Below are positions 21,114 to 25,537 of a stretch of DNA of 37,660 bases, piece by piece. A program made the position numbers and the translations under genes. Source of the stretch: Lachnospiraceae bacterium (lineage in GTDB: Bacteria; Bacillota; Clostridia; Lachnospirales; Lachnospiraceae); the NCBI GenBank assembly GCA_015057445.1, contig SVEI01000020.1, positions 1 to 37,660 of the forward strand, written 5' to 3'. The notes under the pieces were generated by a model that worked only from the letters and a program-made list of their open reading frames with translations, searched no databases and was not told the origin of the DNA. How positions within the stretch are numbered: the first letter of the stretch is position 1; each line of letters starts with the position of its first letter.

Positions 21114-23021
21114 ATGAAGAAAGGTACTAGAAGAGGATTTGGATTATATTTAGGCTTGATTATGATTGGCGTATGTTTGGTGGTATTTTTACAAAGTAGA
21201 AATACTAACTTGGATACAAGCTATACCATAGAAGATTTTAGAGCACAGGTGTCAGAGGGATTGATTAGTGAGGTGGCTATTTACCAAAATAGCGATGTGC
21301 CTACAGGTACTGTACAGATTCTTCACAAAAATTCTAATGTAATTATTGAGTTTTATGTTTCTGACGTAAATGTAGTTCAAGAGATTGTAATGGAGTATGG
21401 TGATGGAACTATTGAAATGAGTCTTCAAGATGTTACAGATGACACAACGTTTTTCACTATATTACCTATTATACTAATTGTGTTCTTAACATTATTCTTG
21501 CTTATGATGTTAATCGGCGGTGGCGCTGGTGGCGGTGCTGGCGGTGGCGGCGCTGGAAAGGCTATGAGCTTTGGAAAGAGCCGTGCTAAGAAGACAGAAG
21601 AGGGAGACAATAAGCACACATTTAAGGATGTGGCTGGTCTTGATGAAGAAAAAGAGGATATGGAGGAAATAGTTGATTTCCTAAAAAATCCTAAAAAATA
21701 TAGCGCACTTGGTGCAAGAATACCTAAGGGTGTATTGCTTGAGGGCCCTCCGGGAACTGGTAAAACTCTTCTTGCTAAGGCTGTTGCAGGAGAGGCAGGA
21801 GTTCCATTCTTTACTATATCAGGATCGGATTTCGTAGAGATGTTTGTTGGTGTAGGTGCATCTCGAGTAAGAGATTTATTTGAAGATGCTAAGAAGAATG
21901 CGCCATGTATAGTATTTATAGACGAGATAGATGCAGTTGGACGAAAGAGAGGTTCTGGTCTCGGTGGTGGTCATGATGAGAGAGAGCAGACTCTTAATCA
22001 GCTTCTTGTAGAGATGGATGGATTTGGAACTAATGAGGGAATTATAGTTCTTGCAGCTACTAATAGAGTTGATATTTTAGATCCGGCACTTCTTAGACCA
22101 GGTAGATTTGATAGAAAGGTTTTAGTTGGACGACCTGATGTAAAAGGAAGAGAAGCTATCCTTAAAGTACATGTTAGAAATAAACCATTGGCAGAGGATG
22201 TTGATCTTCATGAAATAGCTAGAACTACTGCAGGATTTGCAGGTGCAGACCTTGAGAATCTTATGAACGAGTCTGCAATAGCGGCAGCTAAGCAGAACCG
22301 ACAGTATATTAAAAAAGAAGATGTAGACAAGAGCTTTGTTAAGATTGGTATTGGCGGAGAAAAGAAAAGTCGTCTCATTCCGCAGAAGACTAGAGAAATT
22401 ACAGCTTACCACGAAGCAGGTCATGCGATATTATTCCACTTACTAAGTGAAGTTGGTCCGGTGCATTTGGTATCTATTATACCTAATGGTCGTGGAGCAG
22501 GTGGATATACTATGCCACTTCCTGAAAATGATAATGTATTCATGACTAAGAAAAAGATGCTCCAGGATATTCAGGTGAGTTTTGGTGGCAGAATTGCCGA
22601 GGAACTTATTTTTGGAGATATTACTACAGGTGCATCTCAGGATATTAAGCAGGCTACACAGATGGCACAGGCAATGGTTGTTAAGTATGGTATGTCCGAT
22701 GAGATAGGGCTTATTAACTATGAGGTTGATAGTGGAGAGGAAGTATTCCTTGGAAGAGATTTAGGACACTCAAGAAGCTACAGTGATGAGGTTGCTGCTC
22801 TTATTGATAAGGAAGTAAGAAAGATTATCAAATACTGCTATGATGAGGCAAAGCGCATTATCGTAGATAATATAGATGTTCTTCATTCTTGCGCTAAGAG
22901 ACTTCTTGAGAAGGAAAGAATTGATAGACCAGAGTTTGAAGCTTTATTTGAGAAAAATATTGCAGAGCCAGAAGGTGCAGACGATAATAAAGTAACAGAA
23001 ACTGAGAATCAAAACTCATAA
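21114..23021 (+). CDS. ftsH: ATP-dependent zinc metalloprotease FtsH
   Basis: A 635-residue membrane AAA+ protease that unfolds and degrades misfolded membrane and regulatory proteins; in B. subtilis it is also needed for sporulation. Domains in order: TM1 (8-26), a small extracytoplasmic domain (about 30-110), TM2 (112-134), a Gly/Ala-rich linker (136-148), the AAA domain and the peptidase domain. The AAA domain has Walker A GPPGTGKT (211-218), Walker B IVFIDEID (266-273) and SRH arginines near 328-334. The zinc site is HEAGH (433-437), with D510 as the third ligand. All key residues are present and the C-terminal tail is acidic. A GAAGGGAG site lies before ATG 21114. It ends the conserved block and has its own terminator. 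Confidence 0.98.
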
Positions 23022-23093: not shown

Positions 23094-23127
23094 AAAAAGG
23101 GTTTAATTAGGCGTTAAACCCTTTTTG
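23094..23127 (+). terminator. Terminator after ftsH
   Basis: A perfect 13-bp stem (23094-23106 with 23114-23126), 7-base loop, with the T-run forming the distal end of the stem. A weaker hairpin (CACAAC at 23060 with GTTGTG at 23077) lies just before it. Both stand in the 413-base gap 23022-23434, which also holds the small-RNA unit. Confidence 0.85.
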
Positions 23128-23188
23128 CTTTGGTGCAAAATGTATAAAAACTTCCAAAAAAAAATTTAATGTTTGGGCAGACTTTTTA

Positions 23189-23216
23189 TTGTTTTTTAAA
23201 TGCAATCTGCTATAAT
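23189..23216 (+). promoter_or_regulatory. Extended -10 promoter of the candidate small RNA
   Basis: TATAAT (23211-23216) is preceded by TGC, giving an extended -10, with TTGTTT (23189-23194) 16 bases upstream. The predicted start of transcription is near 23223. It is about 215 bases ahead of the amylase start and is separated from it by a terminator. Confidence 0.7.
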
Positions 23217-23222
23217 ACCCAT

Positions 23223-23329
23223 TGTAACCCCCCAATACATTATATAGTTTTTTGCTACACCCCATAAGTAACAAAATACCTTCTCCGAAAAGGACAGTCG
23301 AACGGTGGCTGTCCTTTTCTACTTTTTTG
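23223..23329 (+). ncRNA. Candidate small non-coding RNA, about 105 nt
   Basis: A promoter upstream and a terminator at 23288-23329 bound a stretch with no credible ORF or ribosome-binding site. Predicted structure from 5' to 3' is: a short single-stranded leader with six C residues (23228-23233), then a hairpin (23250-23258 with 23268-23276, one mismatch) whose 9-base loop is ACCCCATAA. Then comes a linker and the terminator hairpin. C-rich unpaired loops are typical of Gram-positive sRNAs that pair with Shine-Dalgarno sequences (for example RsaE/RoxS). The family is not one I recognise. It could instead be an attenuated leader of the GH13 gene, but that gene has its own promoter further on. 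Expression needs to be shown. Confidence 0.5.
23288..23329 (+). terminator. Terminator of the candidate small RNA
   Basis: A 12-bp stem (23288-23299 with 23307-23318, one G-U pair), 7-base loop GAACGGT, and T-rich tail ending in TTTTTT. Confidence 0.9.
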
Positions 23330-23363
23330 TAAGCTATTCTGCCACATCGCGAAAATATATTTC

Positions 23364-23392
23364 TTGTTAAATTTTCCATATTGTATTAAAAT
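23364..23392 (+). promoter_or_regulatory. Promoter of the neopullulanase-like gene
   Basis: TTGTTA (23364-23369) and TAAAAT (23387-23392) with a 17-base spacer, about 35 bases before the gene's GGGAGGA ribosome-binding site region. It lies downstream of the small-RNA terminator, so the enzyme gene can be transcribed independently. Confidence 0.55.
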
Positions 23393-23434: not shown

Positions 23435-25537
23435 ATGTCTATGACGGATAGAATATCAAGGGCAAGGAAAACTTTCGATTATATATTTAATACAAAGTCA
23501 GCACTTAACTTTGTTGCTTTGTTTGCGGATGGTACAGAGTACTATAGAAGTCCTGCAGAGGTTGAAATGGGTGGCAATGTTACTTTGAAATTTAGGACTG
23601 CTGCTGATAATGTAGATAGAGTATATCTTATATGTAACGGGGAGAGATATCTTATGCAGATAGCTGATAAAGATTATCTCTTTGATTACTATTCTTATAC
23701 CATTGAAAATATAGATGATGAGTTAAACTATTATTTTGAGATACAAGCAGGTAATGTGACTTGTTATTATAATAAACTTGGTTCCCAGAGGAATGTTAAT
23801 CCAGATTACAACTTCCAGATATTCCCTGACTTTAAAGTTCCTACTTGGGCTAGAGGTGCAGTTTTTTATCAGATATTTGTGGATAGATTTTGCAATGGTG
23901 ATGAGAGTAATGATGTGCTTGATAACGAGTACTGTTATATAGGTGAAGGAACAAGAAGAGTAACAGATTGGTTTAAGTATCCAGATAATATGGATGTTCG
24001 TTCCTTCTATGGTGGTGACTTACAGGGTGTTATGGATAAGTTAGATTACCTAAAGGATTTAGGTGTAGATGTAATCTATCTAAATCCGATATTTGTATCC
24101 CCATCTAATCATAAGTATGATATTCAGGATTATGATTATATAGACCCACATTTTGGTGTGATTGTGAAGGATGAGGGAGAGTGCTTGCCAGAGTGGTCTA
24201 AGACCAACAAGGATTCCACAAGATATATTAATAGAGTAACCAACAAGGAAAACTTAGAGGCAAGTAATGCATTGTTTGCAAAATTAGTTGAAGAGGTTCA
24301 CAAACGTGGTATGAAGATTATCTTAGATGGAGTATTCAACCACTGTGGTTCCTTTAATAAGTGGCTTGATAGAGAGTGTATATACGAGAATCAGGATGGC
24401 TATGAAAAGGGTGCATTCGTAGATGCAGAGAGTCCTTATAGAAGTTTCTTTAAGTTCCATGACCAATGGCAATGGCCATATAACACCACTTATAATGGAT
24501 GGTGGGGACATGATACACTTCCTAAGCTTAACTATGAAGAGTCTGAGAAACTTTATGAATATATAATGAGAATCGGAGAAAAATGGGTATCGCCACCTTA
24601 TAACTGTGATGGATGGCGACTTGATGTTGCTGCAGACCTTGGATATACAGAAGAGTTTAATCACAAGTTTTGGAGAGACTTCCGAAAGAGAGTTAAGAAG
24701 GCAAATCCGGATGCAATCATACTTGCAGAGCACTATGGTGACGCTAAGAACTGGCTATTAGGAGATCAATGGGATACAGTAATGAACTATGATGCATTCA
24801 TGGAGCCTATAACCTGGTTTTTAACGGGTGTTGAAAAACATAGTGATGAATTTAGAGGAGATTTATTAGGCAATCCAGATGCATTTACAGGTTCGCTGAG
24901 ACATCATATGTCTAGATTTAACCAGAATTCTCTTGAGATAGCAATGAATGAGCTCTCAAACCATGATCATTCAAGATTCTTGACTAGAACTAACAGGCGA
25001 GTTGGCCGTATTCATACTATGGGACCACAGGCGGCTAATGAAAACATTAATAAGGGTGTTTTCAGGGAGGCAGTTGTTTTCCAGATGACATGGCCTGGAG
25101 CTCCTACAATATATTATGGCGATGAAGCAGGGCTTTGCGGTTGGACAGATCCAGATAATAGAAGAACCTACCCTTGGGGAAGAGAGGATATGGAATTAAT
25201 TCAGTTCCACAAGGATATAATTAAGATTCATAAGGAAAATGAAGCTTTGATGAAGGGGTCTGTAATGTTTCTATACGGAGCATACAAGCTGGTAAGCTAT
25301 GGCAGGTTTACGGATAAGCAGGCTGTAATTGTTATAATGAATAATGATTATGAGGATAGGGATCTTAGTATTCACGTAAGTAGACTTGGAATTCCGGATA
25401 AATCAAGACTTACAAGACTTATGATCACTACTGAGGAAGGTTATAAACTAGAAAAGGAAGAATATGTTGTGAAAAATAATACCTTTACAATTAAGGTTCC
25501 AAGAATATCTTCCTTGATATTAAAGTACGATAAGTAG
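23435..25537 (+). CDS. GH13 neopullulanase / cyclomaltodextrinase-like enzyme
   Basis: A 700-residue intracellular alpha-glucan hydrolase (no signal peptide). Residues about 22-125 form an N-terminal beta-sandwich domain like those of GH13_20 enzymes (CBM34 type), followed by the catalytic barrel from about 138. Conserved regions are intact: DGVFNH (298-303), GWRLDVAAD (nucleophile D397), ILAEHYGD (acid/base E432), and LSNHDHSR (D511). LPKLN (362-366) is the region V marker of the oligo-1,6-glucosidase/neopullulanase group (usually MPKLN). An inserted stretch around residues 240-275 lengthens the region before region I. The start is ATG 23435, 8 bases after GGAGG. It probably degrades imported maltodextrins, cyclodextrins or pullulan fragments. 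It is followed after 15 bases by the reductase gene. Confidence 0.94.
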   Translation: MSMTDRISRARKTFDYIFNTKSALNFVALFADGTEYYRSPAEVEMGGNVTLKFRTAADNVDRVYLICNGERYLMQIADKDYLFDYYSYTIENIDDELNYYFEIQAGNVTCYYNKLGSQRNVNPDYNFQIFPDFKVPTWARGAVFYQIFVDRFCNGDESNDVLDNEYCYIGEGTRRVTDWFKYPDNMDVRSFYGGDLQGVMDKLDYLKDLGVDVIYLNPIFVSPSNHKYDIQDYDYIDPHFGVIVKDEGECLPEWSKTNKDSTRYINRVTNKENLEASNALFAKLVEEVHKRGMKIILDGVFNHCGSFNKWLDRECIYENQDGYEKGAFVDAESPYRSFFKFHDQWQWPYNTTYNGWWGHDTLPKLNYEESEKLYEYIMRIGEKWVSPPYNCDGWRLDVAADLGYTEEFNHKFWRDFRKRVKKANPDAIILAEHYGDAKNWLLGDQWDTVMNYDAFMEPITWFLTGVEKHSDEFRGDLLGNPDAFTGSLRHHMSRFNQNSLEIAMNELSNHDHSRFLTRTNRRVGRIHTMGPQAANENINKGVFREAVVFQMTWPGAPTIYYGDEAGLCGWTDPDNRRTYPWGREDMELIQFHKDIIKIHKENEALMKGSVMFLYGAYKLVSYGRFTDKQAVIVIMNNDYEDRDLSIHVSRLGIPDKSRLTRLMITTEEGYKLEKEEYVVKNNTFTIKVPRISSLILKYDK

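What the first reader, a model, noticed from the sequence alone, without database searches (positions are those of the whole stretch)
23189..23329. Free-standing small-RNA unit between ftsH and an amylase gene
An extended -10 promoter, about 105 nt of non-coding sequence and a strong terminator form a complete transcription unit inside a 413-base gap. It has its own ftsH terminator before it and a separate amylase promoter after it. Two unpaired C-rich stretches (CCCCCC at 23228-23233, and the ACCCCATAA loop of a hairpin at 23259-23267) are suited to pair with G-rich ribosome-binding sites, as in RsaE/RoxS. I do not recognise the family. Targets and function are inference; the promoter, hairpins and terminator are seen.
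Basis: partly seen in the sequence, partly recalled or inferred. Interest (0 to 1): 0.72.

Follow-up and report, generated by a model that had tools for sequence, protein, structure and literature searches.

The report
Order-wide C-rich small RNA gene
Between two ordinary genes of a gut-type bacterium lies a short RNA gene, missing from the public RNA-family library, that is kept almost unchanged across much of the Lachnospiraceae and is still recognisable in related families; it looks like a regulator that pairs with messenger RNAs, but no transcript and no target has been shown yet.

Summary
It is far better conserved than chance. DNA searches match 35 of 37 genus genomes (one chance-level, one partial) and 219 of 299 family genomes. 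A covariance model from 42 relatives matches 211 of 392 genomes of the order (weakest hits unread), but only 3 unconvincing ones outside it. Among 11 distinct genus sequences the RNA body is 95% identical, outer flanks 52-55%. No Rfam family matches.

Three C-rich motifs persist, with a few exceptions, while the scaffold changes. A promoter box lies 15/16 or 26/27 nt before the -10, one helical turn apart, suggesting an activator. Hfq: 0 of 120 family genomes. RsaE: 0 of 116 of the order.

Most likely an activator-driven, Hfq-independent, trans-acting C-rich sRNA, working like RsaE/RoxS but not a member. Target prediction gave no clear signal. In some relatives its 3' half is repeated around inserted segments, one with an integrase.

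The parts
21114..23021 (+). ftsH, upstream neighbour (Peptidase_M41 + AAA)
   Evidence: Pfam scan; ftsH upstream of the sRNA in 85 of 113 testable distinct loci
23094..23126 (.). terminator-like hairpin closing the ftsH unit
   Evidence: listed on the minus strand; on the plus strand the same stem ends in T5
23141..23150 (+). TGTATAAAAA, version of a TGCACAAAAA element seen about 20-30 nt above the box in many relatives
   Evidence: read by eye from the loci printed; not counted
23171..23184 (+). promoter box GTTTGGGCAGACTT (consensus of the relatives GTTTRTGMACACTT), probable activator site; 26 nt before the -10 here
   Evidence: 90 loci
23208..23216 (+). extended -10, TGC-TATAAT
   Evidence: TATAAT or a near variant in the loci printed
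23224..23328 (+). small RNA, about 105 nt; start inferred from the -10
   Evidence: covariance model match at 23223-23327
23228..23233 (+). C-rich motif 1 (4 to 9 C in the 42 aligned relatives)
23234..23258 (+). near-invariant AATACATTATATAGTTTTTTGCTAC in the family; replaced by strong hairpins in several other lineages
23257..23267 (+). C-rich motif 2, ACACCCCATAA
23278..23286 (+). motif 3, ACCTTCTCC (anti-Shine-Dalgarno-like)
23287..23319 (+). terminator stem-loop
   Evidence: 10 of 12 consensus pairs have sequences with both sides changed and the pair kept
23320..23328 (+). terminator tail with T tract
23260..23326 (+). part matching the 65-68 bp direct repeats that flank inserted segments in some relatives (probable attachment site)
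23364..23392 (+). promoter-like site of the amylase gene
   Evidence: 9 of 12 matches
23435..25537 (+). alpha-amylase-family gene, downstream neighbour
   Evidence: amylase downstream in 79 of 111 testable distinct loci

Best explanation
This is the gene of a trans-acting, C-rich small regulatory RNA of about 105 nt, a family of its own in the order of the Lachnospiraceae. It is transcribed from an extended -10 promoter that a DNA-binding activator switches on from the GTTTRTGMACACTT box. The RNA keeps three motifs (CCCCC, ACCCCAUAA, ACCUUCUCC) that can pair with G-rich Shine-Dalgarno regions of several mRNAs and block translation or alter mRNA decay, without Hfq. Shown: gene anatomy, conservation, terminator covariation, persistence of the motifs, box spacing, no Hfq or RsaE match. 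Inferred: transcription, the activator, trans action and base pairing with mRNAs. The targets and the signal are unknown.
For: Conservation: 35 of 37 genus genomes at E<=0.1, own genome included (G032 is chance level, G001 partial; the three without a real hit are 64-79% complete); 219 of 299 family genomes, 218 of 298 genera; 211 of 392 order genomes by covariance model. In 55 pairs of 11 distinct genus sequences the RNA body is 95% identical, the promoter region 68%, the outer flanks 52% and 55%. Non-coding: C-run length is 4 to 9 and the body length takes all three values modulo 3 (14, 12 and 16 of 42 rows). Terminator: 10 of 12 pairs with compensatory changes. C-runs are predicted 86-87% unpaired against 61% for other C in 117 distinct RNAs. 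In other lineages strong hairpins replace the middle yet leave CCCC in loops or just after a stem. Box to -10 distance, free to be 12-29 nt, in 90 loci: 15 nt (38), 16 (40), 26 (5), 27 (4), other (3); loci whose box scored under 11 of 14 were dropped, uncounted. The strict box plus -10 pattern hit 45 of 299 genomes, control columns 0 in the rows listed; in all 30 loci read it stands at an sRNA copy, 28 by the ATACCTTCT motif and two by the sRNA 5' part. Hfq 0 of 120, with positive controls. 28 of 113 testable loci lack ftsH upstream and tandem copies exist.
Against: No transcript was seen; there is no RNA data here. Target prediction on 667 start regions was unclear: mean duplex -15.0 kcal/mol against -15.6 for shuffled RNAs and -14.3 for coding stretches; 49 helices under -14 against 43-108 for ten shuffles; under -12 it had 221, reached by 1 of the ten (126-233). 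Three picked candidates were tested in the genus: PpaC and Ppk sites of the window's species are not conserved; the Pfp pairing recurs in 16 of 28 but follows its conserved N-terminal codons. CCUUCUC is only 65% unpaired, near the 61% average. Motifs are not strictly constant: L137 has no first C run, L122 no third motif, the second copy in L134 no second motif. The near-invariant AU-rich middle is not explained by anti-SD pairing. The activator is not identified; a looser box pattern had 43 hits in the own genome against 26 for the reversed control, so other targets of the regulator are not excluded. The strict pattern misses most sRNA loci too (45 genomes against 219).
Confidence: 0.72

Rival explanations
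1. A protein-binding RNA: the C-rich and AU-rich conserved parts bind and titrate or guide an RNA-binding protein, not mRNAs.
For: The middle AAUACAUUAUAUAGUUUUUUGCUAC is conserved beyond need for anti-SD pairing in the family; no clear target signal was found; no Hfq match.
Against: The middle is replaced by unrelated hairpins in other lineages while the C motifs mostly stay, which fits loops or single strands that pair with RNA.
Confidence: 0.14
2. A cis element: leader or attenuator of the amylase gene, or processed 3' end of the ftsH mRNA.
For: The ftsH-sRNA-amylase order is conserved: ftsH 85 of 113, amylase 79 of 111, both in 70 loci.
Against: Own conserved promoter box and -10, terminator-like hairpins on both sides. 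28 of 113 testable loci have no ftsH upstream, and tandem copies occur. Amylase start regions show no special complementarity (67 loci, mean z -0.01; 7.5% below -2 against 3.7% of all start regions). Inserted segments separate sRNA and amylase in some relatives.
Confidence: 0.05
3. A short protein-coding gene on either strand, for example the 90-codon minus-strand frame 23107-23379.
For: A mechanical ORF exists.
Against: Homopolymer lengths and body length change in all frames; the conserved plus-strand part has no ATG.
Confidence: 0.02

Closest known systems
RsaE / RoxS (Rfam RF01820), Staphylococcus and Bacillus
   Same: Firmicute sRNA with several C-rich regions able to pair with Shine-Dalgarno sequences, extended -10 and a response-regulator site upstream (passages of PMC4409812).
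   Different: The RF01820 model matches 0 of 116 genomes of the order and is not in the match tables of the window or nine divergent loci. Different order, context and box sequence; RoxS also has a Rex site just after its start (passages of PMC5419742), which was not sought here.
LhrC (Listeria), FsrA (Bacillus), csRNAs (Streptococcus): recalled; for LhrC only a listing line was seen
   Same: Gram-positive C-rich anti-SD sRNAs, some multicopy and under a two-component system.
   Different: No Rfam match of any kind at gathering score in the window; no sequence comparison with these was made.
6C RNA (Actinobacteria): recalled
   Same: C-rich hairpin loops.
   Different: No Rfam match; its anatomy was not compared.

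Membership tests
RsaE/RoxS (RF01820) | Match to the family's covariance model | tested here: not met
   0 of 116 genomes of the order with Infernal's stricter filters, control B. subtilis positive; not in the cmscan tables of the window and nine divergent loci
RsaE/RoxS (RF01820) | Several C-rich regions | tested here: met
   Three motifs in the alignments, with a few exceptions among divergent loci
RsaE/RoxS (RF01820) | Activation by ResD/SrrA at an upstream site | not testable with these tools
   A conserved box exists; some relatives have TTTGTGAAT with 27 nt spacing, and the likeness to ResD sites is recalled only
RsaE/RoxS (RF01820) | Translation repression by pairing with Shine-Dalgarno regions | tested here: inconclusive
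   No clear excess over shuffled RNAs in 667 start regions
Stand-alone intergenic sRNA gene | Own promoter, non-coding body, intrinsic terminator, conserved as a unit | tested here: met
   by sequence only
Stand-alone intergenic sRNA gene | A transcript of the expected size | not testable with these tools
   No RNA data available
Hfq-dependent sRNAs | Hfq present in the host | tested here: not met
   PF17209 in 0 of 120 family genomes, own genome included; 5 of 14 control genomes positive; a very divergent Hfq is not excluded
Any Rfam 15 family | Score at or above gathering | tested here: not met
   0 matches in the window; all listed rows are below their gathering scores

The most novel reading that the evidence does not exclude
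An order-wide, Hfq-free master sRNA of the Lachnospiraceae and their kin, driven by its own dedicated activator and acting on many mRNAs at once by mimicking the ribosome's anti-Shine-Dalgarno sequence, and so constant that mobile elements use its 3' half as an integration site, as others use tRNA genes.
Probability: 0.2. Interest if true: 0.85.

Novelty: new member of a known kind. Interest (0 to 1): 0.6.

Why it matters
Lachnospiraceae are among the main anaerobes of the gut (general knowledge), and no sRNA of this reach was found for them in the searches made. An sRNA detected in 218 of 298 sampled genera of the family, in bacteria without a detectable Hfq, makes Hfq-free riboregulation directly testable in cultured species such as Blautia or Lachnoclostridium. 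The locus also appears to be an integration site for mobile elements in some relatives.

Tried and rejected
Targets: duplex energies and ungapped helices for 667 start regions from 40 stretches (about 734 kb, about 27% of the window's genome) plus the window gave no clear excess over shuffled sRNA. A hint that several pyrophosphate/polyphosphate enzymes pair with UUAUAUAGUUUUUU was followed into the genus: PpaC mean z -0.8 (19 of 20 loci usable), Pfp -0.8 (28 of 30), Ppk 0.04 (30 of 30). The PpaC and Ppk sites of the window's species are lost in the more distant members; in three distant PpaC loci another pairing (CCAUAAGUA) appears. The Pfp site recurs in 16 of 28 but lies in codons for a conserved N-terminus. 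For some loci the start picked by the script was probably wrong. These gene names are by eye and from the protein sequences, not from a family search.

Cis regulation of the amylase: no special complementarity (67 loci).

Rfam rows are far below gathering scores and were dismissed. Of the three phylum hits outside the order, L124 and L125 look like chance; L123 has C-rich stretches in a similar order but no ACCTTCTCC and no box that I could see, and is left open. In one search, 28 of the 211 matching genomes (my count) belong to one other family of the order (f17) with E between 1.4e-4 and 0.009; their loci were not listed or read.

Prophage copies: one IMG/VR stretch holds the sRNA after an ftsH-like tail (tail read by eye, no tblastn hit). 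The 16-base search gave 26 unrelated stretches and the longer one none.

Literature: no description of this RNA in the listings (20 of 76 shown; 20 of 88; 2 of 2; 20 of 79, search for four strings of its sequence; 23 of 24; 15 of 36; 15 of 24); only titles and abstract openings were seen. Passages of PMC5171806 do not mention it; its supplementary data were not read. Chen et al. 2011 (PMC3025663) is not held, so a prior prediction cannot be excluded.

Rows dropped: the loci that repeat the window's own place were left out; 42 of the resulting 58 sequences went into the alignment and model, near-duplicates being left out by hand.

Full report
What is there. The gap between ftsH and an amylase gene holds a complete small transcription unit at 23224-23328. 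In order: a 14-base box (23171-23184), an extended -10 (23208-23216), CCCCCC, a 25-base AU-rich stretch, ACACCCCATAA overlapping its end, ACCTTCTCC, a 14-pair terminator stem and a T run. It folds better than 200 of 200 shuffles, mainly because of the terminator. The own genome holds one copy.

More than chance. In the genus, 35 of 37 genomes match at E<=0.1, own genome included. One of these (G032, E 0.046) is chance level, one (G001) is partial, and the three without a real hit are 64-79% complete. In the family, 219 of 299 genomes match at E<=0.01, the weakest of them doubtful. A covariance model from 42 sequences finds 211 of 392 genomes of the order, some of them the source of its own training sequences. 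About 28 of the 211 are weak matches in one family (f17) whose loci I did not read. In the phylum it finds 8 of 398: five in the order, three weak ones outside that I do not count. Record titles of carriers include Blautia, Lacrimispora, Enterocloster, Fusicatenibacter and Lachnoclostridium (120 stretches, scan stopped at its limit). Across 55 pairs of 11 distinct genus sequences the body is 95% identical, the promoter region 68% and the outer flanks 52% and 55%.

Non-coding. The C run is 4 to 9 long, and the body length takes all three values modulo 3 in 42 rows, so the minus-strand frame listed is not kept.

Structure. The terminator is supported by compensatory changes at 10 of 12 pairs. 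In divergent lineages (for example L133, L136, L139-L144) a strong hairpin stands directly before the second C motif, and in L136 and the L135/L139 lineage the first C run lies in a hairpin loop. So the motifs mostly persist while the scaffold changes. Exceptions: L137 lacks the first C run, L122 the third motif, the second of three copies in L134 the second motif. Over 117 distinct RNAs the first and last C runs are 86% and 87% unpaired in prediction, other C 61%, the CCUUCUC motif only 65%.

Promoter. Of 90 loci with a recognisable box, 78 have it 15 or 16 nt before the -10 and 9 at 26 or 27; three have other values. The window's own species is in the second group. Distances were free between 12 and 29; loci with a poor box were dropped and not counted. 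One helical turn apart is what a protein acting from one face of the DNA would give. The box covers or adjoins the -35 region and no good -35 is present, so an activator is the simpler reading (inference). The strict pattern hit 45 of 299 family genomes; all 30 loci that were read lie at an sRNA copy, 28 by the 3' motif and two by the 5' part. This suggests few other promoters with the strict box, but the strict pattern also misses most sRNA loci, and a looser pattern in the own genome had 43 hits against 26 for the reversed control, the sRNA's being the only exact one. Some relatives show a TTTGTAATATTTGTGAAT-like direct repeat, which recalls OmpR-type response-regulator sites; this is a lead only.

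Context. Among 117 distinct sRNA loci, ftsH is upstream in 85 of 113 testable, an amylase downstream in 79 of 111, both in 70. Some genomes may be represented twice, because G handles and titled contigs can overlap. Extra copies occur in tandem (L134, L438, L439) or elsewhere in the same genome, for example two per genome in four genomes of genus g299.

Hosts without Hfq. The Hfq model finds 0 of 120 family genomes, while 5 of 14 control genomes are positive. A divergent Hfq below the cut-off cannot be excluded.

How it probably works. The best account is an activator-driven C-rich sRNA that pairs with G-rich start regions of mRNAs. The comparison with RoxS/RsaE rests on passages about its C-rich regions and ResD site and its Rex site and pairing to an mRNA 5' end. 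Membership fails the covariance-model test. I could not show targets: mean duplex energies and strong helices are within the range of shuffled RNAs, with a slight surplus of medium helices (221 under -12, reached by 1 of 10 shuffles), and three candidates gave no convincing conservation. This is the main gap.

Integration site. In G029, G008 and G026 a 65-68 bp repeat of the sRNA 3' half lies 6.8, 6.3 and 2.6 kb downstream of the full copy (start to start). The amylase gene follows the partial copy directly in G029 and G008, and after a GGDEF gene in G026. In G029 the segment encodes a tyrosine recombinase with a Tn916-type DNA-binding domain and a YhcG-type nuclease. In G008 and G026 no integrase was recognised among the proteins scanned. 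G011 has a partial copy on another contig. The full sRNA stays intact at the ftsH side, as when elements integrate in tRNA genes. In 120 titled loci only one further such partial copy (L235) was seen; its sequence looks the same as G026's, so it may be the same organism. The use as a site is thus shown in few genomes.

Novelty. No Rfam family, and no paper found in the capped listings. An older prediction list for clostridia was not readable. I rate it a new family of a known kind, Gram-positive C-rich sRNAs, with unusual breadth.

Noticed in passing
L441 408-475 and 7246-7313; L442 441-506 and 6782-6847; L443 2045-2109 and 4636-4700: Direct repeats of the sRNA 3' half bracket inserted segments; the L441 segment encodes a tyrosine integrase and a YhcG-type nuclease. 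The sRNA gene seems to be an attachment site.
   Followed up: partly
L265 1-240: A stretch of an IMG/VR viral contig holds an ftsH-like tail (by eye; no tblastn hit) and a complete sRNA; the frames after it were not identified. Possibly a prophage next to the sRNA.
   Followed up: partly
120 genomes of the family: The Hfq model matched 0 of 120 genomes, with 5 of 14 controls positive: the family appears to lack recognisable Hfq.
   Followed up: partly
L134; L438; L439: Tandem copies of the sRNA: three in L134 (genome G346; one of them has lost the second C motif), two each in L438 and L439.
   Followed up: no
L373-L402, start region of a PPi-dependent phosphofructokinase-like gene (name by eye): In 16 of 28 genus loci the best pairing joins the first codons to AUAUAGUUU(UUU) of the sRNA, but those codons encode a conserved N-terminus.
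   Followed up: partly
L433, L434 and L437, just before and in the partial copies: A short AUGGG...CCCAU hairpin would hide the second C motif in these partial copies (read by eye).
   Followed up: no
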